Source of the DNA: Prevotellaceae bacterium
Lineage (GTDB): Bacteria; Bacteroidota; Bacteroidia; Bacteroidales; Bacteroidaceae
DNA: 8,527 nt
Assembly: GCA_021204885.1 (NCBI GenBank)
Contig: JAJPYP010000003.1
Span: forward strand, 1 to 8,527
Direction: 5' to 3'
Shown here: piece after piece, positions 1 through 8,494 of the stretch
Position numbering within the stretch: position 1 is the first letter of the stretch
Layout of the letters: each line of letters opens with the position of its first letter
Made by a program: the position numbers and the translations under genes
The notes under the pieces: generated by a model
Databases searched by the model: none
Told to the model about the DNA's origin: nothing
Seen by the model: the letters and a program-made list of their open reading frames with translations, nothing else

Positions 1-90
1 AGACATATATATTATATATAGGGATAATAATATTATAAACTTAAATAAACAAGATAATAATAAACAAGATAACGTAACTATTATAAATGC
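1..90. other. Candidate replication origin: AT-rich tract inside initiator gene
   Basis: Only 15 of the first 90 bases are G or C (83% A+T, counted by hand). The helicase-loader gene that follows reaches about 67% GC at 541-600. The tract contains alternating TA runs, a 10-bp palindrome ATAATATTAT (27-36) and a 15-bp tandem duplication (44-73). It encodes the flexible linker of the initiator protein. In lambda O and several Gram-positive siphoviruses the origin lies within the initiator gene, with repeats and an AT-rich unwinding element, so an origin here is plausible. Equally, low-complexity linkers in Bacteroidales initiators are often AT-rich without any shown origin role. Confidence 0.3.
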
Positions 91-424
91 GGAAAATGAA
101 AAAAAGTCCGAGAAAAAATTTTTTACACCGCCGACCGTCGAGGAGATACAGGCCTACATCGACGAGAAGAAATACAACGTTGACGCGGAGCAGTTCTTCC
201 TCTTCTACGACCAAAAGAACTGGATGGTCGGAAAGAACAAGATGAGCAAATGGCACAGTGCCGTCGCTCTTTGGAACAATCGTGAAACCAAAGAAAAAAA
301 GATAAGAGATGAAAAAGATTACAGAGAAAGACTCCGTAATGGAGATGTGCAACTCCCTGCTTCGAAGGAAGAGTACTTTAAATCGTTTCTCCCTGAAGGT
401 GACCCGAGAAACCGCCGTAGATAG
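1..424 (+). CDS. Phage replication initiator, C-terminal part (5' end outside window)
   Basis: An open frame read from base 2 continues to the stop at 422-424 (140 codons) with no start codon before base 224, so this is the 3' end of a gene that begins upstream. The first ~35 residues are an Asn/Lys/Gln-rich linker with NKQDN repeated twice. Bases 122-283 encode a conserved block: FTPPTVEEIQAYI, then VDAEQFFLFYDQKNW, MVGKNKM and a final W-x-x-A-V-x-x-W. This block is characteristic of the C-terminal tail of phage DnaD-like / Lin1244-Lin1753-type (DUF4373) replication proteins. Those proteins bind the origin and recruit the helicase loader, which fits the DnaC-like gene that follows and overlaps by 116 bases. 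The N-terminal winged-helix part is not in the window. The ATG at 224 lies inside the conserved block and is not the start. Family recognition is from memory of these motifs. Confidence 0.8.
   Translation, partial: DIYIIYRDNNIINLNKQDNNKQDNVTIINAENEKKSEKKFFTPPTVEEIQAYIDEKKYNVDAEQFFLFYDQKNWMVGKNKMSKWHSAVALWNNRETKEKKIRDEKDYRERLRNGDVQLPASKEEYFKSFLPEGDPRNRRR
44..73 (+). repeat. 15-bp tandem duplication (AATAAACAAGATAAY x2)
   Basis: Bases 44-58 and 59-73 are identical except for the last base (T against C). The unit is five codons long, so the initiator linker reads NKQDN-NKQDN. The repeat could be an iteron-like initiator binding site or simple replication slippage in a linker. Only two units are present in the window. 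Confidence 0.85.
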
Positions 425-995
425 CCTTACAGCCGCCGTATGGGCGGAAGTAAGATACCGCCTCCGCGAGTTTGACGAGGACGACAATACACAGCTTGTT
501 ATCGGGAAGGTGGCCGAATGGCTTATTGACGAGAGCCATTTCGGGTTGCTGCTGATGGGAGCCCCCGGCAACGGCAAGACCACCATGATACGCGCGGTGG
601 CCTCACTGATAGGCGCGATGGAGATTTACGATGTAAGGTGCGAGGGAATTCTGCGCGTGAAGACGATTAAGGCGAGAGACCTTGCCATGCTTGCGCGTGA
701 AGACGCGAAGGCATACAACAAGCTTCTGAACTACCCGCTGCTTGCCATAGACGACATAGGGATTGAACCTGCCGAGGTGAAGTACTTCGGGAACATGCTC
801 AACCCTGTGGTGGACCTGCTCTACCACCGCTATGACGAACAACTGTTCACGATGGTGACCACCAACCTTACACCGCCGCAGATTCTGGAGAAGTACGGAT
901 TGCGGCTTGCCGACCGCTTTTACGATATGATGGAGGTAGTAACATATACCAACGACTCTTATCGCGGGCGACAAGGCGGTTTTTCTTGCGTCTAA
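309..995 (+). CDS. DnaC-like AAA+ helicase loader ATPase
   Basis: This 228-residue protein is a DnaC/IstB-type AAA+ ATPase that would load the replicative helicase onto the origin opened by the upstream initiator. Visible motifs are Walker A GAPGNGKT (84-91), Walker B LLAIDDIG (144-151), a sensor-1-like TTNL (184-187) and an arginine-finger-type RLADRF (199-204), followed by a short tail ending near SYRG. The order and the spacing from Walker A to RxxDR are normal for DnaC-like loaders, and the sequence resembles those of Bacteroidales mobile elements. The start is uncertain. ATG 309 gives a 116-base out-of-frame overlap with the initiator gene; ATG 339 or 345 would still overlap by about 80. 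No good Shine-Dalgarno sequence precedes any of them. The Walker region is notably GC-rich. Confidence 0.92.
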   Translation: MKKITEKDSVMEMCNSLLRRKSTLNRFSLKVTRETAVDSLTAAVWAEVRYRLREFDEDDNTQLVIGKVAEWLIDESHFGLLLMGAPGNGKTTMIRAVASLIGAMEIYDVRCEGILRVKTIKARDLAMLAREDAKAYNKLLNYPLLAIDDIGIEPAEVKYFGNMLNPVVDLLYHRYDEQLFTMVTTNLTPPQILEKYGLRLADRFYDMMEVVTYTNDSYRGRQGGFSCV

Positions 996-1173
996 GCGAT
1001 TTTCTTTGCAAATGTGTATAAGTTATTGCCCAAGGAAAGAAAGTGGCTTAAATCGAAAATAAATCATGTTTTTAACAAATCAACTTAGAAACTGGAAATA
1101 TGGACGAAGAGAACGAGCGTGCCGAGTTGAATGGTATATTTAAGAAAAACAATTACAATTAAAGTCACACATC
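996..1173 (+). other. Largest intergenic gap; probable leader of the small-gene operon
   Basis: These 178 bases are AT-rich. They separate the replication module from the run of small genes, so a promoter here would make sense. I could not find a convincing Bacteroides -33 TTG / -7 TAnnTTTG pair. TTTCTTTG (1001-1008) is one base off the -7 box but lacks a correctly spaced upstream element. There is an 8-bp palindrome TTTGCAAA (1005-1012) and no hairpin followed by a T run. Confidence 0.4.
1100..1162 (+). CDS. Possible 20-residue leader or minimal ORF
   Basis: An ATG at 1100 opens a frame of 20 codons, acidic at the N-terminus (MDEENERAELN) and lysine/asparagine-rich at the end, with stop TAA at 1160-1162. 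The stop is 11 bases before the ATG of the next gene. It has an AT-rich, non-Shine-Dalgarno upstream region like other genes in this window. It may be a leader peptide, a remnant or chance. The acidic hydrophilic composition resembles real coding sequence but is too short to decide. Confidence 0.25.
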   Translation: MDEENERAELNGIFKKNNYN

Positions 1174-1566
1174 ATGGATAAAAAAACATTACAGAAAAAG
1201 TTTACGAAAGAGCTTATCCGCAAGGCCAAGGAGAACGGCTCGATAGACCGCCTGAACCGTCTGCTGTCGGCCGCGCACCTGATCAACTGCGTGGCCAACG
1301 ACCTTATCGAGGAGGGGTCGGAGCTGATGGAGCGTTGCGGCTTGAAGTTCGGCGAGCTCAGGCACAACCACCGTATGTTCACCCAGCGTGCGGACATGTA
1401 TTTTGACTGCTTCGCGAAGCTGGTGAACACCGACAAGCAGAAGGAGTGCATGTTCCGCGACATGGAGAAGTTCGAGAACTGGTTCCGTGACTACGCCGGA
1501 TTGACTGACAGGAAGGCGGAGTTGCCCGAAATCGTGGACGAAGAAGAAAAGGAGGCGAAGCCATGA
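1174..1566 (+). CDS. Unknown 130-residue helical protein
   Basis: I do not recognise this protein. It appears almost entirely alpha-helical and highly charged. It begins with a basic segment (MDKKTLQKKFTKELIRKAK), has a central helical region with scattered Cys and His, and ends in an acidic tail (PEIVDEEEKEAKP). No signal peptide or membrane segment is visible. The start at 1174 follows an AT-rich spacer without a Shine-Dalgarno sequence. Its final codons carry AAGGAGG (1549-1555), which serves as ribosome-binding site for the next gene, and its TGA overlaps that gene's ATG. GC-rich codon use supports real coding. It is probably an early phage accessory protein. Confidence 0.75.
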   Translation: MDKKTLQKKFTKELIRKAKENGSIDRLNRLLSAAHLINCVANDLIEEGSELMERCGLKFGELRHNHRMFTQRADMYFDCFAKLVNTDKQKECMFRDMEKFENWFRDYAGLTDRKAELPEIVDEEEKEAKP

Positions 1567-1712
1567 AAGCACGTCTTACAAGGTGCGCTTCACGGAGGCT
1601 GTACGTCATACCTACCGTGACAATAGAGAAGCGCGTGTTCTACTCTTTCGCCTACTACGTGGAGTTCCATTGGCTGCACTTCACGCTGGAGATGGAAATA
1701 ATCAGGAAATAA
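1563..1712 (+). CDS. Unknown 49-residue aromatic-rich protein
   Basis: A short gene starts at ATG 1563, overlapping the previous stop as ATGA, and ends at TAA 1710-1712. GGAGG at 1551-1555 sits seven bases before the start. The N-terminal third is basic (MKARLTRCASRRLY). The rest has alternating aromatic and hydrophobic residues (FYSFAYYVEFHWLHFTLEM) followed by IIRK, suggesting beta-strands or a small membrane-associated peptide. The hydrophobic run is broken by Glu and His, so it is not a clean transmembrane helix. Its translation is probably coupled to the gene before it. I cannot assign a function. Confidence 0.65.
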   Translation: MKARLTRCASRRLYVIPTVTIEKRVFYSFAYYVEFHWLHFTLEMEIIRK

Positions 1713-1721
1713 TCATTTGAA

Positions 1722-1727
1722 AGGAGG
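1722..1727 (+). promoter_or_regulatory. Shine-Dalgarno AGGAGG deciding the start at 1735
   Basis: AGGAGG lies seven bases before ATG 1735. The same frame extends to a TTG at 1717, but that codon lies upstream of this site, so ATG 1735 is the likely start. Confidence 0.8.
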
Positions 1728-1734
1728 AAAGGTT

Positions 1735-2181
1735 ATGAGTTTGGAAAAAGAAAAAGGATTGACAGATGCCGGCCGTGAGATTATCACGTCCTTGGCAAGG
1801 GATTTGGCCGAATACGACACTGCATGGAAAGAGTGCGCCAAGGCTATGGATGACATGACGGGCGAGCGGCTCAGGAGAGGTTGCAGGAATGCATGCGACC
1901 TCTGTCCACGATACTCCGACTGCAAATATCGCGTCCTATTCAAGGATGCTCTCGAGAAGGAGGAGAAGGCCGCAAAGAAATACGCTTTCAACTCCATTTT
2001 GAGCTATAACATGCTTTACGTTTTCCGAATGGCAGGTGCCACATACAAGGAGATAGGCCCGCTGGTGGAGAGCTATTTGGAACATGAACGCTCGCTTTTC
2101 GGCGGCATCACGAAGACCACGGCCAAGATGCTGACAGAGATAGGGGCGAAAGTCCCGAAAGACGTGCTGAAAAAAATATAA
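1735..2181 (+). CDS. Four-cysteine cluster protein, family member 1
   Basis: A 148-residue protein of unknown function. Residues 1-48 look helical. Cysteines at 50, 54, 57 and 63 form C-x3-C-x2-C-x5-C (CRNACDLCPRYSDC), followed by a basic/acidic helix and a C-terminal half that is more hydrophobic (YNMLYVFRMAG, then a helix-turn-helix-like stretch to VPKDVLKKI). The cluster could bind zinc. Its C-x2-C-x5-C part also has the spacing of the Fe-S staple in Cas4/AddB nucleases, although no nuclease motif is visible here. Four other genes in this window share the arrangement. The start is set by the strong Shine-Dalgarno sequence. The next gene, also a family member, begins 12 bases after the stop. 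This is the longest C-terminal domain in the set apart from that of the gene at 8012. Confidence 0.82.
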   Translation: MSLEKEKGLTDAGREIITSLARDLAEYDTAWKECAKAMDDMTGERLRRGCRNACDLCPRYSDCKYRVLFKDALEKEEKAAKKYAFNSILSYNMLYVFRMAGATYKEIGPLVESYLEHERSLFGGITKTTAKMLTEIGAKVPKDVLKKI

Positions 2182-2193
2182 GAGATACGGGTT

Positions 2194-2508
2194 ATGAAAA
2201 GAGGACAAATGATTGCAAGGGAGTTGGCGGGCAGGCTTGCGGCATGCCTGCAGACGGAAAAGGACGTGCACAAGGCGGAGGAAAAGGTGAACGCCTGCCA
2301 AGACCAGCGGGGCTATCCATGCACGAGCTGCCTTTCATGCTTTAGCTGCGTCGATGCTACGAAGCTCAGGGAACTCAACTACAGGAGACGGAAAAACCAC
2401 AAAGACCTGTTCGGCTCTTTGCGTACCTACTCGAACGACATCTTCGACGCGCTGGGCGCGGAAAAGGAGGATATCGCGGAATATACGGAATTGATTTATA
2501 ACAAATAA
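2194..2508 (+). CDS. Four-cysteine cluster protein, family member 2
   Basis: A 104-residue unknown protein with the shared plan. A helical N-terminus (residues 1-34) is followed by cysteines at 35, 43, 46, 49 and 52, giving C-x7-C-x2-C-x5-C with one extra Cys (49) inside the last gap (CTSCLSCFSC). A very basic segment (LNYRRRKNHK) and an acidic helical C-terminus follow. The four shared cysteines occupy exactly the residue numbers seen in the gene at 3329 (35, 43, 46, 52), a strong hint of common ancestry. ATG 2194 has no clear Shine-Dalgarno sequence. ATG 2209, five codons in, is preceded by GAGG at 2201-2204 and is an alternative start. It lies directly behind family member 1 and is probably co-transcribed with it. 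Confidence 0.82.
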   Translation: MKRGQMIARELAGRLAACLQTEKDVHKAEEKVNACQDQRGYPCTSCLSCFSCVDATKLRELNYRRRKNHKDLFGSLRTYSNDIFDALGAEKEDIAEYTELIYNK

Positions 2509-2523
2509 CTAAAAATAGAGCCT

Positions 2524-3321
2524 ATGGATAATTTTGTTGTGACATTTCAAGAGATAACGCCGGAAATCGCGCAACGTTATCTCGGTTATTTATGCGAACA
2601 GCGCAATATCAGGAGAGGCCTCGTGGAACGCTACGTTGCGATTATGGACAAAGGCGGATGGAAGCCCAACCCGTCGCAGCCGTTAGTGTTCTCCAACAAA
2701 GGGCATCTTTTAAACGGCCAACACAGGCTGAACGCCGTTGTTAAAAGCGGGAAGACCGTTGTGATGGCTGTAATGCACGGCGTTGACGAGGAGGATTTCT
2801 CCATAATCGACACCGGAGGCATGCGCACGCCGACCGATATGCTCACCATAAAGGGTGTAGAGAACGCCTCGATGGTCTCCGCTATTGTCAGCAGATACCT
2901 GTACCTTATTGATTCGAGGTATGACATGAAAGCGTCGTCAAGGGATTTGGTGTTGAGCACCTACTTGAACGACAGTCAGCTTTGGCAGGAAATCGTACGG
3001 TTTGCATCACGGTACTACAAGAGGACAATTTCGGTTCTATGTACTTCAGAGGTAGGCGGAATATACGCCTACTTGGTTAAGTACCGCAACCACAGCCGGG
3101 AGAAGATAGAATCGTTCTTTAACCAGTTGTTCGGGGACGAGAACATTATTTGCCCGGTCATACGCACGCTCCGCAATAGGCTGTTGCTTGCCTTGAAAAG
3201 AAAAAATTTGACAAAAGAAGCCAAATTGAAGTGTGTGCAGGTCGCTTGGAATATGTTTATCAAAGGCAGCAAAAGTAACAAGCTTGTCGTTGATATGAAC
3301 GAGGTGTATAAATTCAACTGA
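2524..3321 (+). CDS. ParB/DGQHR-like phage protein
   Basis: A 265-residue protein. The N-terminal half matches a widespread phage/plasmid family often labelled ParB-like. It has EITPEIAQRYL near residue 10, W46 in GGWKPNP, the signature HLLNGQHRLNAVVKSG (61-76) and IIDTGGMRTPTDML (94-107). NGQHR corresponds to the DGQHR signature of ParB/Srx-fold proteins and DndB-like regulators, in which this loop can bind nucleotide. Some ParB/Srx proteins are CTPases, nucleases or DNA-binding factors, and which applies here is unknown. The C-terminal half is helical and basic (LRNRLLLALKRKNLTK), consistent with nucleic-acid contact. The start follows an AT-rich spacer without Shine-Dalgarno. The gene is flanked on both sides by four-cysteine family genes. 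Confidence 0.78.
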   Translation: MDNFVVTFQEITPEIAQRYLGYLCEQRNIRRGLVERYVAIMDKGGWKPNPSQPLVFSNKGHLLNGQHRLNAVVKSGKTVVMAVMHGVDEEDFSIIDTGGMRTPTDMLTIKGVENASMVSAIVSRYLYLIDSRYDMKASSRDLVLSTYLNDSQLWQEIVRFASRYYKRTISVLCTSEVGGIYAYLVKYRNHSREKIESFFNQLFGDENIICPVIRTLRNRLLLALKRKNLTKEAKLKCVQVAWNMFIKGSKSNKLVVDMNEVYKFN

Positions 3322-3328
3322 CAACGTT

Positions 3329-3673
3329 ATGGAAAGGAAAGAAATAATCTATACCGCCGCCGAGCGTCTTGCCTACAGCAAGCGCCGCGACGAGATTATG
3401 AATGAGCTTTGGTTGAAGGTGAAGGAGTGCTGCAAGAGCAAGCACTTCATCGCCTGCAACGAATGCTACAAAAGAACGGAATGTGACTTGTTCAATCAGC
3501 ATCAAATATCCAACCGGAAGGCGGCCGCGTGCAGGCAACTCGCGGTTATATGGATGTATAGAAATTATGACGTGCTGTTGAAGGCTTGTTTTAAGGAAGC
3601 AGGCGTGGACTTCGAGGGACTGGTAAACGACTACCGCAAGACAGTGAGCAACGAGGACAGGATATCTTTTTGA
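3329..3673 (+). CDS. Four-cysteine cluster protein, family member 3
   Basis: A 114-residue unknown protein. The helical N-terminus (residues 5-33) precedes cysteines at 34/35, 43, 46 and 52, read as C-x7-C-x2-C-x5-C (ACNECYKRTECDLF). A helical C-terminus contains two further lone cysteines and an aromatic patch (VIWMYRNYDVLL). The core spacing is identical to family member 2 although the sequence is otherwise divergent. It follows the ParB-like gene after seven bases, without a Shine-Dalgarno sequence, and its TGA is directly before the AAGGAGG that serves the next gene. Metal or Fe-S binding is inferred from cysteine spacing only. Confidence 0.82.
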   Translation: MERKEIIYTAAERLAYSKRRDEIMNELWLKVKECCKSKHFIACNECYKRTECDLFNQHQISNRKAAACRQLAVIWMYRNYDVLLKACFKEAGVDFEGLVNDYRKTVSNEDRISF

Positions 3674-3689
3674 AAGAAGGAGGATGAAA

Positions 3690-4016
3690 ATGCAGCTGGG
3701 ATTTTTTAAGCCGAACAAGAGCTATCAGAAGCTCTTCGACGCTGTAATGGAAGCCAAGGGCAAGCAGGCGGATTTTCAGAAAGCCGTGAAAGAAGCGGCT
3801 GAAAGCATCGTATTCAAGGGCTTTAAAGGCAAGTATTATACCGTAACCTACGACGGCAAGACCGGCATGGAAATCGAGTACGACGGCCGTGTAATGAAAG
3901 AGCCGATGATACTTGAAAGGATGATGCATTTCGGCAACATCAAACCAGAGGACTTCGACCTTTGCGAGAAGAAAGAGCCGAACCCCATGTACACTGGAAT
4001 CATTAGTTTAAACTAA
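3690..4016 (+). CDS. Unknown 108-residue protein
   Basis: Not recognised. The N-terminal ~50 residues are helical and lysine-rich. Residues ~45-70 look like two or three beta-strands (GKYYTVTYDGKTGMEIEYDG). The C-terminus is mixed and ends ISLN. Two in-frame ATGs are available, at 3684 and 3690. The Shine-Dalgarno sequence AAGGAGG (3677-3683) directly abuts the first and is six bases before the second, so 3690 is the better start. The last five codons form a perfect 16-bp palindrome. No cysteine cluster is present. Confidence 0.75.
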   Translation: MQLGFFKPNKSYQKLFDAVMEAKGKQADFQKAVKEAAESIVFKGFKGKYYTVTYDGKTGMEIEYDGRVMKEPMILERMMHFGNIKPEDFDLCEKKEPNPMYTGIISLN

Positions 4017-4017
4017 T
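4002..4017. promoter_or_regulatory. Perfect 16-bp palindrome ATTAGTTTAAACTAAT over a stop codon
   Basis: The 16 bases equal their own reverse complement and include the TAA of the preceding gene. They lie 13 bases before the MazG-like ATG. No T run follows and there is no loop, so this is not a normal intrinsic terminator. A dimeric repressor or activator site controlling the genes from 4031 on is possible but unproven. Confidence 0.35.
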
Positions 4018-4030
4018 CAAGATATATATC

Positions 4031-4585
4031 ATGGATTTAAACGAATTGGCTAAGCGTGCGCACGAAACGGCGGTGAAGCACGGATTTTACGATAATGAAG
4101 TGTCGGAGAGGTCGCTTCAAATGCTTGTGATAACGGAGTTGGCCGAAGCGGTGAACGCGGACCGTAAAAACCGACACGCGAAGTTGGAACTGTTCAACGC
4201 TTGCTCCTGCACGTCGGAGGACTTTTATAAGGATGTCTTTATCAAGAACTTTGAAGAGTACATTAAAGACACGGTGGAGGATGAGCTTACGGACGCTGTG
4301 GTACGTTTGCTCGACTATGCGGTCTATCTCGGATATACTCTTAACGGAATGAGGTCTTATAATGTGTATGGCATATTCGTTGAAGACATATTCGGCTTGG
4401 TTAGGCGAGTGACTGATACGATACACTATATGTTGGATGGCGAGAAAGAGTTACACATCAACATATTACTTAATGACATTATAGAATTGCTTGACCATAT
4501 CTCGGACGGTAACGCGGAGTTCTACATCAACACCAAGATGAAGTACAACGAGTTCAGGCCGTACAAGCATGGCAAGTCTTACTAA
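4031..4585 (+). CDS. MazG-like NTP pyrophosphohydrolase
   Basis: This 184-residue protein belongs to the all-alpha NTP pyrophosphohydrolase (MazG / dimeric dUTPase-like) group, which cleaves nucleoside triphosphates to monophosphate and pyrophosphate with Mg2+. The paired acidic motifs are visible: E36-x2-E39 in VITELAEAVNADR and E85-x2-D88 in DTVEDELTDAVVRLLDYA, the usual metal ligands. The N-terminal helix (LAKRAHETAVKHGFYD) is also typical. The stretch between the motifs (~50-80) includes the FIKNFEEYIKD pattern common in phage and Bacteroidales versions. Residues ~105-184 extend beyond the core and are less conserved. The substrate could be dNTPs, noncanonical NTPs or alarmones; the sequence does not tell. 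The start follows an AT-rich spacer without Shine-Dalgarno. Confidence 0.85.
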   Translation: MDLNELAKRAHETAVKHGFYDNEVSERSLQMLVITELAEAVNADRKNRHAKLELFNACSCTSEDFYKDVFIKNFEEYIKDTVEDELTDAVVRLLDYAVYLGYTLNGMRSYNVYGIFVEDIFGLVRRVTDTIHYMLDGEKELHINILLNDIIELLDHISDGNAEFYINTKMKYNEFRPYKHGKSY

Positions 4586-4599
4586 AAATTTATCAAGAT

Positions 4600-4974
4600 A
4601 TGGAAGTAATAAAATCAAGGAAAATGCAGTACATCGGTGTTGACTGCATGAACGCCGGCAGGCTGGAGGCGGTCAACGACCTGCTCTACTACTGCAAGAT
4701 GTGGAAAGAGCAGGACGGTTTCCAGCCGGATCCGCTGGACGGCGAGCAGAAGGGCTATACGCCCACGTTCTACGTGGACTACTCCAACCGGTGCATTTGC
4801 GTGCGTGGCGCCAAGCCGGTGACCTCTTTCCCACCCATGCTGCTGGTGGTGCTGAAAACGCCGGAACGCGCGGAGGACTTCGGCAACACGTTCATCGATT
4901 TGTTCAACAAATGGATTCTCGATGCGGACATTCCGCTGGAGAGTTCCTTGGCGTATGGAGGGCAGCAGGTATGA
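4600..4974 (+). CDS. Unknown 124-residue protein
   Basis: Not recognised. The pattern suggests a mixed alpha/beta fold: a short strand YIGVDCM, a helix LEAVNDLLYYCKMW, strands TFYVDYSNRCICVRGAKPV, a hydrophobic segment PPMLLVVLKTP, and a C-terminal helix AEDFGNTFIDLFNKWI. GC content is high (172 of 300 bases at 4621-4920, 57%), in sharp contrast to the next gene. The start at 4600 follows an AT-rich spacer containing ATCAAGATAT, a 10-mer also present just before the MazG-like gene. The stop TGA overlaps the next ATG. GGAGGG near its end serves as ribosome-binding site for the next gene. Confidence 0.75.
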   Translation: MEVIKSRKMQYIGVDCMNAGRLEAVNDLLYYCKMWKEQDGFQPDPLDGEQKGYTPTFYVDYSNRCICVRGAKPVTSFPPMLLVVLKTPERAEDFGNTFIDLFNKWILDADIPLESSLAYGGQQV

Positions 4975-5228
4975 TGACTAAGGACGATATTAAGGAATTT
5001 GAAAAATTAGTAGACGCATGCAAGGATGCAGCCATGAGAACTTATCCGGATAGTGAACTATATTGCGCAAGCATGAGATTGTGCGGTTTTATAGATAATC
5101 GTTATATTGTTGATGAGTTAAAAAAGTGCATCGCTTACGACGATACCCCCATCTTCAAAAACATGCCGAACGGAGCTTCAAACGGATGCGTGGCAAAAGC
5201 AATAACGTATGAAGGGGAAGAACAATGA
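4971..5228 (+). CDS. Unknown 85-residue protein
   Basis: The start is at ATG 4971, within the ATGATGA junction with the preceding gene, and GGAGGG (4957-4962) is eight bases upstream. The same frame extends upstream to 4701, but that stretch is only the preceding gene read out of frame. The protein begins MMTKDDIKEFEKLVDACKDA, a helical segment resembling the start of the extra C-terminal part of the DUF4406 protein that follows (MTKEEVDIFAKKWKRAKDA). Bases 4981-5160 are 38% GC (68 of 180), far below the preceding gene. Five cysteines are scattered without a CxxC pair. Its TGA overlaps the next ATG (ATGA at 5225). Function unknown. Confidence 0.75.
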   Translation: MMTKDDIKEFEKLVDACKDAAMRTYPDSELYCASMRLCGFIDNRYIVDELKKCIAYDDTPIFKNMPNGASNGCVAKAITYEGEEQ

Positions 5229-5779
5229 GTTGCAAGGTTTACATATCGGGAAAGATAAGCGGTGTTAGCTTCGCAAAAGCCTACGACAAGTTCTTGGATG
5301 CCGAGAAGCGTCTGAAAAGCGAGGGGTACGATGTTGTCAACCCTATGACGATAAAATTCCCCGACGAATTCGGATGGGCGGATTGTATCCTTTACGACTT
5401 GAAAGAGTTGCAAAGGTGCGATGCCATCTATCTGTTAAAGGATTGGGAGGATTCAAACGGTGCGAAAATTGAGAAGTCATTCGCCGATGGGATTGGTTTA
5501 AAGATAATGTACGAGGAGAAGCCGCTTTCGGTGGTTATGACTAAGGAAGAAGTTGACATATTTGCCAAAAAGTGGAAAAGAGCAAAGGATGCGTATGCCG
5601 AATATCTTGCCGCACCCGTACTTGAAAGTTTTGGCTTGCGCGAGGGATATAGGACATTAGTGCGTGAGATGTTTCTTGATACAGTAGACTTTGACGTGGT
5701 TGAAACTCTTTACGCAGGAGCGGAAGCAATGGATAACAATAAAAAAATAGACAATGGGAATATACAAGGAAATGCATGA
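5225..5779 (+). CDS. DUF4406 protein (nucleoside deoxyribosyltransferase-like) with C-terminal extension
   Basis: Residues 4-96 match the DUF4406 family, which is related to nucleoside 2-deoxyribosyltransferases. The signatures are KVYISGKISG (4-13), VVNP (37-40), FGWADCILYDLKELQRCDA (49-67) and LLKDWEDSNGAKIEKSFADG (70-89), then a GLKIMYEE ending. Such proteins are common in phage early regions, and a nucleotide-binding or base-exchange role is usually presumed rather than shown. The family is normally about 90-110 residues. This protein is 184, with an extra helical segment beginning at M105 (MTKEEVDIF...) that resembles the N-terminus of the upstream protein and looks like a fusion. The last ~17 residues are Asn/Lys/Gly-rich and probably disordered. 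The start overlaps the preceding stop as ATGA. Confidence 0.85.
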   Translation: MSCKVYISGKISGVSFAKAYDKFLDAEKRLKSEGYDVVNPMTIKFPDEFGWADCILYDLKELQRCDAIYLLKDWEDSNGAKIEKSFADGIGLKIMYEEKPLSVVMTKEEVDIFAKKWKRAKDAYAEYLAAPVLESFGLREGYRTLVREMFLDTVDFDVVETLYAGAEAMDNNKKIDNGNIQGNA

Positions 5780-6416
5780 GCTGACAACAAGGCTTTTGGA
5801 CACGGAAGAATCATTATGGATTCCGGAAGACGGCATTACGGAAGTAGGCAGGTGTAAGACAACCGAAGAAATGCTGCGTGGAAATACGATAAGCCGAGAA
5901 ATGTTTGATATCATAGACACCGCAAAGCCGGAGTTTCACCCCTTTTTCTTTGACAAGAAAAAGGACAAGGCGGAGACACCCATCCGTTTTTCAAGGCTGC
6001 AACTACTTGTCATGGACGGTCTGTTGGAGGTTGTCGATGATATGCTGCATGAGTACGGCATCAATGCCGCCGAGAAGGGACATGATAACGGGGACGCGGA
6101 ATACTGCCGTTTATATGTCCGGATAGACATGTACCGGTTCGCGCGGCTGATATTCGGGGACGATGTGGAAATAGACAAGCCTACGGTGTCCTCTCTTGAA
6201 AGTGCGGTAGACGAACTTGAAGAGGTGGGCGTGTCCTACAGTGGAGACAAGGGGCGCATTACCACCCATGCGCTCTGCGACATGGGAAAACTTACAAGTA
6301 AAGATTCCGGATTAGTCTTAGTTTGTTTTACCATATCCGATACATTTATGTACGCCCGGCACGAGATTGTGGAAAGCATGAAGAAATTTCAACAAGATAT
6401 TGGACAAGGGTTATGA
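5754..6416 (+). CDS. Unknown 220-residue protein
   Basis: Not recognised. Residues ~75-95 form a likely helix (FSRLQLLVMDGLLEVVDDML). Residues ~117-175 (RLYVRIDMYRFARLIFGDD to VGVSYSGDKGRITTHAL) alternate helix and strand in a way that could be a winged-helix fold, and residues ~186-200 (GLVLVCFTISDTFMYAR) look like beta-strands. The DNA-binding idea is only an impression. ATG 5754 overlaps the DUF4406 gene by 26 bases; ATG 5772, six codons on, would overlap by 8. Neither has a clear Shine-Dalgarno sequence. The stop overlaps the next start as ATGA. Confidence 0.78.
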   Translation: MGIYKEMHELTTRLLDTEESLWIPEDGITEVGRCKTTEEMLRGNTISREMFDIIDTAKPEFHPFFFDKKKDKAETPIRFSRLQLLVMDGLLEVVDDMLHEYGINAAEKGHDNGDAEYCRLYVRIDMYRFARLIFGDDVEIDKPTVSSLESAVDELEEVGVSYSGDKGRITTHALCDMGKLTSKDSGLVLVCFTISDTFMYARHEIVESMKKFQQDIGQGL

Positions 6417-6631
6417 CCGAGAAAATATTCAAGCAAAAGTTCAACGACTTCATGGAAGCCGTATTTGAACGCACCGAACCCGAAGAGGCGGAGAAATGGA
6501 GGTGCAAGAGCAGTGAGAGGTATTTCGGCGTGATGGTCTACTCTTCGGACGGTTACCACGCCGCGTTCAACTCGAAAGGCGACGTTACCATGCTGATGCC
6601 GCCGTATCAGAGAAAGGAGGTGCAGGTATGA
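6413..6631 (+). CDS. Unknown 72-residue protein
   Basis: The start at ATG 6413 overlaps the previous stop (ATGA). The frame is open further upstream, but that part merely overlays the preceding gene. Residues 1-30 are a helix with alternating charge (EKIFKQKFNDFMEAVFERTE). Residues ~35-65 look like beta-strands (YFGVMVYSSDGYHAAFNSKG, then VTMLMPP). There are no recognisable motifs. The end of the gene contains AAAGGAGGTG (6614-6623), a full match to the anti-Shine-Dalgarno complement, which serves the next gene. The two are probably translationally coupled. Confidence 0.7.
   Translation: MTEKIFKQKFNDFMEAVFERTEPEEAEKWRCKSSERYFGVMVYSSDGYHAAFNSKGDVTMLMPPYQRKEVQV
6614..6623 (+). promoter_or_regulatory. 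Perfect Shine-Dalgarno AAAGGAGGTG before 6628
   Basis: Ten bases complementary to the 3' end of bacterial 16S rRNA, with four bases left before ATG 6628 (seven after the GGAGG core). The site lies inside the preceding gene. Such a complete match is unusual for Bacteroidales genes, which mostly lack Shine-Dalgarno sequences. Confidence 0.8.
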
Positions 6632-7512
6632 AAGGAGATAAGACATTAGAGACAAAGTTCTTTAAGACTATGGGGGCTTTGGGAACTGTGGGGGATTGCT
6701 TTAGGTGGATGGAAAAACAATATGATTTGATGCCATACATAAACGCAGGGGATGAAGAACGAGCCGAGAGGAATAGGGGCAAAGCCCAAGCCCAAGCCCC
6801 TAATTGGGTTGCCGGGCAACGGCGATTGATGGAGCGGATATTGGAAGAATGCAGCGAGTTTGATTTTGAGATGTTGAGAGATGAAGGATATGCGATTGAT
6901 GCAAGCCCATTAATGGCAGAGATAGCAAGCAATATAGACGGATTGGGAGACGATAGAAAGCACGTGGAAAGGTATATTTACAGCTTGCTACAGCCATTTA
7001 AATACTACAGTGATATAATCACCCCTATCATGCCGATAAAGACGTTTAAAGGGAGAATTAGGCAGCATGAGCAAGAGTTGCAGATGTGGGAGCAGAGGAA
7101 GAAAGAGGCGGCGGATAAAAGCGGCATAGATGAGGCTTTGGAGCATATAAAGTCATGCACCCAAGAGATTGAATCCTGTGAACGTAGGATAGAGCGAGCC
7201 GGGTATGTGAGGGATAAGTACCGGGAAATGCTACAAGCCCCCTATGGGGGATATGATACTGTAGAGGATTGTCTAAGGGGTTTTCACAATCTAATCTGTG
7301 AGTTTGGTTATATGCTCGATGCCCTACTATTGGAGCGAGGGATTAACTTGTTATGGTATCAGAGGAATAAAGGCATTTACTTGTTTGAAAAGAGGAATGT
7401 ACAAGTACTTTCATGGTTGTTTGGGGATGAACGGACACGGAGATATATAGATGAGGCTTTGCCCAAGATGGAGACCGAGCCGGGCGAAGCAGCAGCTGAA
7501 AGAAAAGAATAA
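6628..7512 (+). CDS. Unknown 294-residue coiled-coil protein
   Basis: Not recognised. The protein is highly helical. Residues ~140-205 have strong coiled-coil character (IRQHEQELQMWEQRKKEAAD and IESCERRIERAGYVRDKYRE). The C-terminal part has a hydrophobic helix (YMLDALLLERGINLLWYQRN) and ends in an acidic Glu/Ala-rich tail. Residues 52-58 (KAQAQAP) come from three tandem copies of AAGCCC. Translation starts at ATG 6628 behind the best Shine-Dalgarno sequence in the window and overlaps the preceding stop. Its codon use differs from the neighbours: many GGG, TTG and AGG codons, far more G than C on the coding strand, and about 43% GC in four sampled 60-base lines. This suggests a separate origin. 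A structural or scaffolding role is a guess. Confidence 0.78.
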   Translation: MKGDKTLETKFFKTMGALGTVGDCFRWMEKQYDLMPYINAGDEERAERNRGKAQAQAPNWVAGQRRLMERILEECSEFDFEMLRDEGYAIDASPLMAEIASNIDGLGDDRKHVERYIYSLLQPFKYYSDIITPIMPIKTFKGRIRQHEQELQMWEQRKKEAADKSGIDEALEHIKSCTQEIESCERRIERAGYVRDKYREMLQAPYGGYDTVEDCLRGFHNLICEFGYMLDALLLERGINLLWYQRNKGIYLFEKRNVQVLSWLFGDERTRRYIDEALPKMETEPGEAAAERKE

Positions 7513-7523
7513 GGAGAAATGAT

Positions 7524-7814
7524 ATGGAGATAGATAACAAGCTGGAAGAAGCCCTGAAACGGCATGCGGCAGCTTTCGATGAGTATTGCGACGCACAGAA
7601 AAAGTACAGCCGTGCAAGGCAGGTGGCTTTCACGTGTCGGGCAGAACTTGGTTGCGATACTTGCCTCATACGTAGATATTATTATTGTGGCAAGTTTGAT
7701 GATGCTGTTAAAGCGGAAAGAGATGTTGATATTAAAGAGCGGCTGTTTCTCAAGGCTTCAGAAAAGTTAGCTCTGGAATATAGGAATTTTATAAAGAGAA
7801 AGGAGAATAAATGA
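7524..7814 (+). CDS. Four-cysteine cluster protein, family member 4
   Basis: A 96-residue unknown protein. The helical N-terminus (residues 3-36, rich in Ala, Lys and Glu) is followed by cysteines at 38, 44, 47 and 55, giving C-x5-C-x2-C-x7-C (CDTCLIRRYYYC), then a charged helix (FDDAVKAERDVDIKERL) to the end. The last gap is 7 rather than the 5 seen in the other four members, so it is the most divergent in spacing. The start is supported by AAGGAG at 7511-7516, seven bases upstream of ATG 7524. The stop overlaps the next gene's start as ATGA. It has nothing beyond the shared plan, so it may approximate the minimal family unit. Confidence 0.82.
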   Translation: MEIDNKLEEALKRHAAAFDEYCDAQKKYSRARQVAFTCRAELGCDTCLIRRYYYCGKFDDAVKAERDVDIKERLFLKASEKLALEYRNFIKRKENK

Positions 7815-8008
7815 TAATGGAAGAGAAACAGAATAATTACGACTTGGCCACGACCGATAGCGGCCGAATCAATATTAAAGAGTTGAAAGACGTGCTTACA
7901 CGCATTATGCGGGACTGCGACAAATGCGGTATGCACATCACGAATATAACCATAGTCCGTGATTATGCCGAACGCATTGGAGATTTGAGTATAACGTATA
8001 ATTGTTGA
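7811..8008 (+). CDS. Unknown 65-residue protein
   Basis: The start at ATG 7811 overlaps the previous stop, with AGGAG (7801-7805) five bases upstream; ATG 7817 is also possible. The sequence contains one CDKCGMH motif around residues 37-43 and ends in Cys. A CxxC with nearby His could be half of a metal site, but the four-cysteine pattern of its two neighbours is absent. Predicted secondary structure is a helix (IKELKDVLTRIMRDC), strand (TNITIVRD), then a short helix and strand. It lies between two four-cysteine family genes in one apparent operon. Function unknown. Confidence 0.68.
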   Translation: MIMEEKQNNYDLATTDSGRINIKELKDVLTRIMRDCDKCGMHITNITIVRDYAERIGDLSITYNC

Positions 8009-8011
8009 TTT

Positions 8012-8494
8012 ATGAATGACAAACCGAAAAAAACAGGTAGGACCATGGAACAAAAGAATTTGAATATAACGACCGACTTGGACAAAGCCGTGGAAAAAGT
8101 GGAACAGGCAATGAAAGAGTACGATGAGATGAGCAAGCGCGAGGATGAGCTGATAAGGCGGCAGATGAAATGTCTCCGGAAAAACGGAAACATGGAAAAA
8201 TGCATCGGATGCTTCGATTACCACAGGTGCGACATCCTTTACAGCCTGCAAGAGGTACATCGGGAACAGGGATACCAGAAACAGACGGTTGTTGCCGTCG
8301 CGAATACAATGGTGAGGCTCTACAAGAGCACTAAGGAAAAGGAGAAGCGTTCAAAACTTGTTGCCGTAGTGTACAAGGCTTATATGGAGGATAAGAAAGA
8401 TGAAAATAATAGACATTTACAGAGCGATTTAAAATTTTCAAAATACTTTATGTACACTCTCCCATTTGATTATCATAACAACCCTGAGAGATAG
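8012..8494 (+). CDS. Four-cysteine cluster protein, family member 5
   Basis: A 160-residue unknown protein. A polar lead (1-20) is followed by an acidic helix (TDLDKAVEKVEQAMKEYDEM), then cysteines at 54, 64, 67 and 73, giving C-x9-C-x2-C-x5-C (KCIGCFDYHRCDIL), then a long helical region. The C-terminal ~35 residues (from about KKDENNRHLQ) come from AT-rich DNA and look unlike the rest, possibly a recent extension. ATG 8012 has no Shine-Dalgarno sequence. ATG 8045 (residue 12), preceded by an AGGTAGG stretch, is a good alternative and would give a 149-residue protein. It is the member with the widest first gap. Function unknown; metal or Fe-S binding is inferred. Confidence 0.8.
   Translation: MNDKPKKTGRTMEQKNLNITTDLDKAVEKVEQAMKEYDEMSKREDELIRRQMKCLRKNGNMEKCIGCFDYHRCDILYSLQEVHREQGYQKQTVVAVANTMVRLYKSTKEKEKRSKLVAVVYKAYMEDKKDENNRHLQSDLKFSKYFMYTLPFDYHNNPER

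What the first reader, a model, noticed from the sequence alone, without database searches (positions are those of the whole stretch)
1735..8494. Five divergent small proteins share one four-cysteine cluster architecture
Genes at 1735, 2194, 3329, 7524 and 8012 encode C-x3-C-x2-C-x5-C, C-x7-C-x2-C-x5-C, C-x7-C-x2-C-x5-C, C-x5-C-x2-C-x7-C and C-x9-C-x2-C-x5-C. Each cluster lies after a helical N-terminus of ~35-50 residues and before another helical stretch. In the members at 2194 and 3329 the four shared cysteines have identical residue numbers (35, 43, 46, 52). Outside the cluster the sequences are very different. Five copies within 6.8 kb suggest expansion and fast diversification of a metal- or Fe-S-binding module, as in accessory or anti-defence factors. 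C-x2-C-x5-C also occurs in the Fe-S staple of Cas4/AddB nucleases, but no nuclease core is seen here. I know of no named family with this plan.
Basis: partly seen in the sequence, partly recalled or inferred. Interest (0 to 1): 0.72.

Follow-up and report, generated by a model that had tools for sequence, protein, structure and literature searches.

The report
Four-cysteine helical hairpins in one phage
A short piece of DNA, probably from a virus of gut bacteria, carries five small, mutually dissimilar proteins that each look like two long helices joined by a four-cysteine, probably metal-binding, tip; almost no relatives were found and their job is untested.

Summary
Shuffling predicts 0.025 such genes. 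Among related loci, 13 of 2146 filtered ORFs match; unfiltered, 56 of 10398, many apparently wrong-frame. The gene given as 8012 probably starts at 8045, where its only independent relative (P0005, 74% identical, all four Cys kept) starts. Helix-loop-helix is modelled well (pLDDT 85) for the 7524 protein, from an alignment of the five plus P0005, and poorly (55) for the 8045 protein, from its own relatives.

No Pfam, PHROGs, NCBIfam or PADLOC model matches convincingly. Descent from one ancestor is plausible but unproven: leave-one-out profiles rank two of five members first or second, and none better than 17th once cysteines are masked. The metal is unknown; RseC and EndoIII/MutY spacing makes [4Fe-4S] somewhat likelier than zinc. 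'Anti-defence' has no direct support. I read these as a local set of unnamed, probably metal-tipped helical hairpins in a phage accessory region.

The parts
1735..2181 (+). Cys protein 1 (148 aa): C50-x3-C54-x2-C57-x5-C63, extra C34; longer C-terminal part than the others
   Evidence: AGGAGG upstream; weak phrog_34924 match E 0.0072 to residues 39-127
2194..2508 (+). Cys protein 2 (104 aa): C35-x7-C43-x2-C46-x5-C52, extra C18 and C49
3329..3673 (+). Cys protein 3 (114 aa): C35-x7-C43-x2-C46-x5-C52, extra C34, C68, C87
7524..7814 (+). Cys protein 4 (96 aa): C38-x5-C44-x2-C47-x7-C55, extra C22; modelled helices 5-42 and 56-95
   Evidence: AF2 pLDDT 85.2, pTM 0.73, six-row alignment A6
8045..8494 (+).
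   Evidence: P0005 same start, all four Cys kept; AF2 pLDDT 54.8: helices 3-47 and 62-135
309..995 (+). DnaC-like helicase loader; places the contig among Bacteroidales phages and prophages
   Evidence: phrog_50, 3.5e-26
2524..3321 (+). phrog_5931 protein (unknown function) between Cys proteins 2 and 3
   Evidence: 1.4e-43
4031..4585 (+). pyrophosphatase-like protein in the same-strand gene run
   Evidence: phrog_9236, 6.8e-41
5225..5779 (+). DUF4406 / nucleoside 2-deoxyribosyltransferase-like protein in the same-strand gene run
   Evidence: PF14359, 1.4e-21; phrog_355, 2.5e-22

Best explanation
The five genes encode small accessory proteins of a Bacteroidales phage. Each is a pair of long helices whose connecting tip binds one metal centre through four cysteines, more likely a [4Fe-4S] cluster than a zinc ion. 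The centre would staple the two helices at the tip, so that the hairpin stays folded while its helix surfaces change freely; the five would be diverged copies, or repeated uses, of one scaffold that bind different partner proteins. Shown: the cysteines, their spacing, the excess over chance, all four Cys kept in the one relative. Supported by modelling of two of the five and by proline-free flanks: helix-tip-helix. Inferred: metal binding, cluster type, common descent, partner binding.
For: Spacing and statistics. All four Cys kept in P0005 at 74% identity. Proline-free flanks. Model of the 7524 protein with the six-row alignment (pLDDT 85.2, pTM 0.73): whose structural neighbours are coiled-coil hairpins; helix-loop-helix at low confidence for the 8045 protein with its own three rows. 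Leave-one-out rank 1 (1735) and 2 (8045). Comparable spacing in proteins reported to hold [4Fe-4S]: RseC CX5CX2CX5C, absorption consistent with an oxygen-sensitive cluster (PMC11729352, passages); EndoIII/MutY Cys-X6-Cys-X2-Cys-X5-Cys (PMC11138216, passages). Hosts of this order are largely anaerobes (established knowledge), which favours Fe-S.
Against: With Cys masked no member ranks better than 17th; ungapped flank comparison is at chance upstream (p 0.68) and weak downstream (p 0.018). The good model used an alignment that already assumes kinship, and its Cys loop is the low-confidence part; there was no single-sequence control. Only one independent relative of one member was found, and at 74% identity keeping four of four Cys is no strong sign of selection. 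In RseC only the last three Cys are conserved and needed. The 7524 protein has x7, not x5, at the end, and the first spacing runs from 3 to 9, looser than in the families named. PMC11138216 itself warns that zinc and Fe-S proteins often have similar motifs.
Confidence: 0.45

Rival explanations
1. Same helix-tip-helix and same Cys4 tip, but the metal is a structural zinc ion.
For: Four closely spaced Cys suit Zn. Of the weak PDB profile matches (3, 5) those aligned over the whole cluster are CBFA2T1 and DEAF1 domains (MYND zinc fingers, name recalled), at E 2.7-7.2; the other two are a DH-domain protein (E 0.96) and a designed protein (E 6.8). Sequence often cannot separate Zn from Fe-S (PMC11138216, passages).
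Against: C-x2-C-x5-C preceded by a near Cys is close to the spacing of reported [4Fe-4S] sites; many Zn knuckles pair two C-x2-C units (recalled), which the five cores lack, except that C49 of the 2194 protein adds a further C-x2-C.
Confidence: 0.33
2. The five are not paralogues: unrelated small helical phage proteins acquired similar Cys4 tips independently, or were brought together from different phages.
For: Little similarity outside the cysteines; no repeat of 18 nt or more joins two of the five genes; different spacing in 1735, 7524 and 8045; GC3 is 0.63-0.69 in the three upstream genes and 0.41-0.55 in the two downstream ones. Small proteins with C-x2-C-x5-C in other layouts occur in related phages.
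Against: Five in one 8.5 kb contig, with the same helix / tip / helix order in each; filtered related loci hold at most one match each (unfiltered, up to three, mostly doubtful frames). Flank scores for 7524 with 8045 (p 0.003 and 0.018) and 3329 with 8045 downstream (p 0.006) are above chance, though out of 20 comparisons.
Confidence: 0.3
3. The cysteines bind no metal; they act as redox or disulphide sites.
For: Extra cysteines (C18, C22, C34, C49, C68, C87) occur outside the four-Cys plan.
Against: A bacterial cytoplasm is normally reducing (established knowledge); a fixed C-x2-C core in all five.
Confidence: 0.08

Closest known systems
RseC cytoplasmic N-terminal domain (CX5CX2CX5C; absorption consistent with oxygen-sensitive [4Fe-4S]; PMC11729352, passages seen)
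   Same: Four Cys with nearly the same spacing in a small segment
   Different: RseC is a two-TM membrane protein of the SoxR reducing system; only its last three Cys are conserved and needed. The five match no RseC model.
EndoIII/MutY [4Fe-4S] motif (Cys-X6-Cys-X2-Cys-X5-Cys; PMC11138216, passages seen)
   Same: Order and C-x2-C-x5-C tail; x7 against x6 in the 2194 and 3329 proteins
   Different: There the motif belongs to a glycosylase; no such domain matched here.
Cas4/AddB iron-sulphur nucleases (spacing recalled)
   Same: C-x2-C-x5-C tail
   Different: No nuclease model matched the five; the first Cys is close, not distant.
Small phage-region proteins with C-x2-C-x5-C followed by a downstream Cys: BS-TP4 gp35 (L002:17133-17324), L062:13488-13697 and 14469-14696, L102:13559-13822
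   Same: C-x2-C-x5-C in a small phage-region protein
   Different: Fourth Cys lies after, not before, the trio; the L062/L102 ones share an N-terminal NGIII...YEAV motif absent here.

Membership tests
One paralogous family made of the five | Members find each other by profile when left out | tested here: inconclusive
   ranks with Cys 1, 481, 28, 18, 2 (order 1735, 2194, 3329, 7524, 8045); Cys masked 17, 113, 1142, 638, 82; 9,179-10,113 ORFs scored per run
One paralogous family made of the five | Same fold with superposing cysteines | tested here: inconclusive
   Two of five modelled, both helix-loop-helix, one at pLDDT 55, the other from the joint alignment; no coordinates at hand for superposition
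Cas4/AddB iron-sulphur nucleases | Nuclease domain model match | tested here: not met
   no nuclease model for any of the five (a PHROG DNA helicase line for the 1735 protein is E 0.32)
EndoIII/MutY glycosylases | Glycosylase domain with Cys-X6-Cys-X2-Cys-X5-Cys | tested here: not met
   no glycosylase model; first spacing x3, x7, x7, x5, x9
RseC | RseC domain model match | tested here: not met
   no match
RseC | Two transmembrane helices | not tested
   No transmembrane prediction was run
MYND zinc finger | Significant profile match | tested here: inconclusive
   E 2.7-7.2, not significant; no Pfam match
[4Fe-4S] proteins in general | Bound iron and sulphide | not testable with these tools
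   Needs protein
Anti-defence proteins | Inhibition of a defence system | not testable with these tools
   PADLOC holds defence models; weak lines only (1735 protein E 0.012, P0005 E 0.028)

The most novel reading that the evidence does not exclude
The contig carries a locally expanded family of [4Fe-4S]-tipped helical hairpins: a cluster-stapled scaffold that a phage of anaerobes diversifies to bind several host or phage partners, perhaps switching off when oxygen or a redox burst destroys the cluster.
Probability: 0.2. Interest if true: 0.75.

Novelty: new variant of a known kind. Interest (0 to 1): 0.42.

Why it matters
Phage accessory regions are full of small unnamed proteins. A recognisable plan (two helices joined by a Cys4 tip) shared by five of them gives a handle for finding more and a testable biochemistry. 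If the site holds [4Fe-4S], it would be a small, sequence-tolerant Fe-S scaffold used repeatedly by one phage.

Tried and rejected
Close DNA relatives in the phage collection: none, near (whole window) or distant (bases 1-8000). tblastn of each of the five in 50,697 phage records up to E 10: nothing credible, best E 0.7. The 8012 protein in plasmids up to E 1: none. Eight viral-contig scans: six aimed at the Cys proteins gave no relative, one with the 2524 protein gave none, one with the loader gave 66 loci. Genome contigs: none with the 8045/P0005 alignment; 142 loader relatives, best 80 kept. Protein database: the five-row profile found three window proteins, P0003 and P0005, but not the window's own 7524 protein, so it is not exhaustive (1863 candidates); P0005 alone returned itself and P0003 (3 candidates). 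None of the four other proteins had a single-sequence search of that database.

Whole genomes: P0005 in 393 genomes of the order of G001 (E <= 0.01: 4 matches, E 0.004-0.006), 399 of the family of G001 (E <= 1e-4: 0) and 397 of the family of G002 (E <= 0.001: 0); profiles in 14 genomes (E <= 1: 2 with matches, best 0.014), in 50 records (0; phrog_34924 in the same 50: 0, with its control found in 2 of 14 named genomes) and in 395 genomes of the class (E <= 0.01: 4, E 0.003-0.01). The loci of those weak matches, L149-L160, were read for a four-Cys pattern: L150-L152, L154, L155, L157, L159 and L160 contain pattern matches, which I judged by eye to be chance frames or, in L152, a ferredoxin-like protein (recognised from memory); no gene of this plan was seen. 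The 50 records were 50 of the 68 phage loci held (2 named phages and 48 of 66 IMG/VR loci). None of these genome searches had a positive control for the query.

Is C-x2-C-x5-C favoured in related phages? In filtered phage ORFs (1083) it is seen 8 times against 1.95 in shuffles, but x2 (7 against 1.85) and x9 (7 against 2.30) are similarly frequent, and in genome loci (1059) it is 4 against 2.85; so no special preference was shown.
Full report
What the window is. 8527 bases, the length the protein database gives for the contig of the window's own proteins, with no DNA match in the phage collection. The 19 genes I called all lie on the + strand, mostly with short gaps or 4-base overlaps and one gap of 178 bases after the loader. 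A DnaC-like helicase loader (phrog_50) follows the end of a gene (phrog_15768, unknown function) where Versailles and BS-TP4 have a replisome organizer or replication initiation gene. The loader has 116 database hits, the window's own included, and relatives in 66 IMG/VR loci and 142 places in bacterial genomes, of which the best 80 were kept; their titles mostly name Bacteroidales (many Prevotella/Prevotellaceae and Muribaculaceae), with three bins named otherwise (L076, L093, L127). Of 8 phage records with a loader match, two cover over 80% of it: Bacteroides phages Versailles (40.6%) and BS-TP4 (33.8%). The contig is therefore most likely part of a Bacteroidales phage or prophage, in the accessory region after the replication genes.

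The observation. All five cysteine clusters are as described. Composition-preserving shuffles of the 19 proteins give 0.025 expected genes with C.{2,9}C..C.{5,7}C; 5 are seen; 0 of 20000 shuffles reach 5. In 148 related loci, 13 of 2146 filtered, non-redundant ORFs match, none two in a locus, against 5 of 17 window genes of that size. Without the filter it is 56 of 10398 in 48 loci, five of them with two or three matches, against 6 of 59 in the window; most of the 56 look like wrong-frame or antisense reading (by eye), though some read like real metalloproteins, e.g. L085, L144 and L147 look like Fe-S proteins (recognised from memory). For the narrower C..C.{5}C the window has 4 of 17 against 15 of 2146, with L062 holding two. 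The pattern limits were chosen after the five were known.

Relatives. Searching the five-row profile against 5.8 billion proteins gave three window proteins (1735, 3329, 2194), P0003 and P0005, and missed the window's 7524 protein. P0003 equals the 8045 protein over 123 residues and stops there; it is listed without a source, as the window's own proteins are. P0005, 103 aa on a 42,204-base NCBI contig, is the only independent relative: 74% identical, all four Cys kept, 6 of the 16 residues between them changed and FDYHR before the last Cys identical. It starts at MEQKNLN, so the window gene probably starts at 8045; it lacks the last ~46 residues of the window protein. P0005 as query gave nothing new. 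No credible relative of the other four proteins was found. Absence from the sampled genomes shows little, as those searches had no positive control.

Is it one family? Tested two ways. Ungapped comparison of the flanks, cysteines unscored: upstream total at chance (p 0.68), downstream weak (p 0.018); the best pairs are 7524 with 8045 (upstream p 0.003, downstream p 0.018) and 3329 with 8045 downstream (p 0.006), out of 20 comparisons, while some pairs are worse than shuffles (1735 with 7524 upstream, p 0.998). Leave-one-out profiles: with cysteines, 1735 ranks 1 (E 0.0048), 8045 ranks 2 (E 0.15, behind a Versailles ORF without the Cys plan), 7524 18, 3329 28, 2194 481; cysteines masked, 17, 82, 638, 1142 and 113 in the same order. 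So the shared signal is mainly the cysteines and their place between helices; descent from one ancestor is plausible, not shown. The two ends of the contig also differ in GC3.

Structure. The 8045 protein with its own three rows: pLDDT 54.8, pTM 0.38, helices 3-47 and 62-135, cysteines at 43 (in helix 1), 53 and 56 (loop) and 62 (start of helix 2); helix packing is uncertain at this confidence. The 7524 protein with the six-row alignment A6 (the five plus P0005): pLDDT 85.2, pTM 0.73, helices 5-42 and 56-95, with 50-52 under 50. The second model borrows the assumption of kinship, and simple helical hairpins are often predicted well anyway, so it is no proof of kinship. Independent of models, the flanks hold 0 prolines in 417 residues against 58 of 2131 in the other proteins (chance about 1e-5); the 45-residue downstream limit was my choice, and Pro109 of the 1735 protein lies just beyond it. 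Only 3 of 10 flanks are more amphipathic than shuffles. Foldseek and VIA-align return only common coiled-coil hairpins for the 7524 model.

Mechanism. Four cysteines in 14 to 20 residues between two helices suggest a metal staple. C-x2-C-x5-C with a near upstream Cys is the spacing of the RseC N-terminal domain, whose reconstituted form absorbs like an oxygen-sensitive [4Fe-4S] cluster (PMC11729352, passages; there only the last three Cys are conserved), and nearly that of EndoIII and MutY (PMC11138216, passages). The same review warns that zinc and Fe-S sites often look alike in sequence. I put [4Fe-4S] somewhat above zinc. Partner binding, and any role in host takeover or counter-defence, is inference from place and size only.

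Comparison. None of the five reaches a curated family: the best lines are phrog_34924 (E 0.0072, 1735 protein) and NF012028 (E 0.0077, far under cut-off, 8045 protein). Related loci carry other small proteins with C-x2-C-x5-C but with the fourth Cys downstream (BS-TP4 gp35, L062 twice, L102); whether those share ancestry with the window's proteins was not tested, and x5 is not clearly favoured over other spacings there.

Verdict. A real and unusual cluster of unnamed proteins with a sensible but untested reading; interesting as a lead, not yet a discovery.

Noticed in passing
L062:13488-13697, L062:14469-14696, L102:13559-13822: A separate small-protein group with N-terminal NGIII...YEAV and C-x2-C-x5-C-x7-9-C, twice in one phage contig and once in a Muribaculaceae genome contig.
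   Followed up: no
window 2524-3321: phrog_5931 protein (unknown function) with an NGQHR motif; remote tblastn matches in 70 phage records, mostly Mycobacterium, Rhizobium, Vibrio, Rhodococcus and Streptomyces phages, a few annotated as ParB-like or DNA-binding.
   Followed up: no
window 5225-5779 and 4031-4585: DUF4406/deoxyribosyltransferase-like and pyrophosphatase-like genes in the same run, suggesting nucleotide-pool functions.
   Followed up: no
window 309-424: The loader's ATG at 309 lies inside the preceding frame (ending at 424), a 116-base overlap if that start is used; Versailles and BS-TP4 are annotated with shorter overlaps at the same place.
   Followed up: partly
window 7811-8008: 65-aa protein between Cys proteins 4 and 5 with one CxxC pair and no proline; not one of the five but similar in flavour.
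   Followed up: no
L085:20282-20566, L144:1367-2119, L147:4194-4814: Among background matches to the four-Cys pattern are genes that read like known Fe-S proteins (recognised from memory).
   Followed up: no
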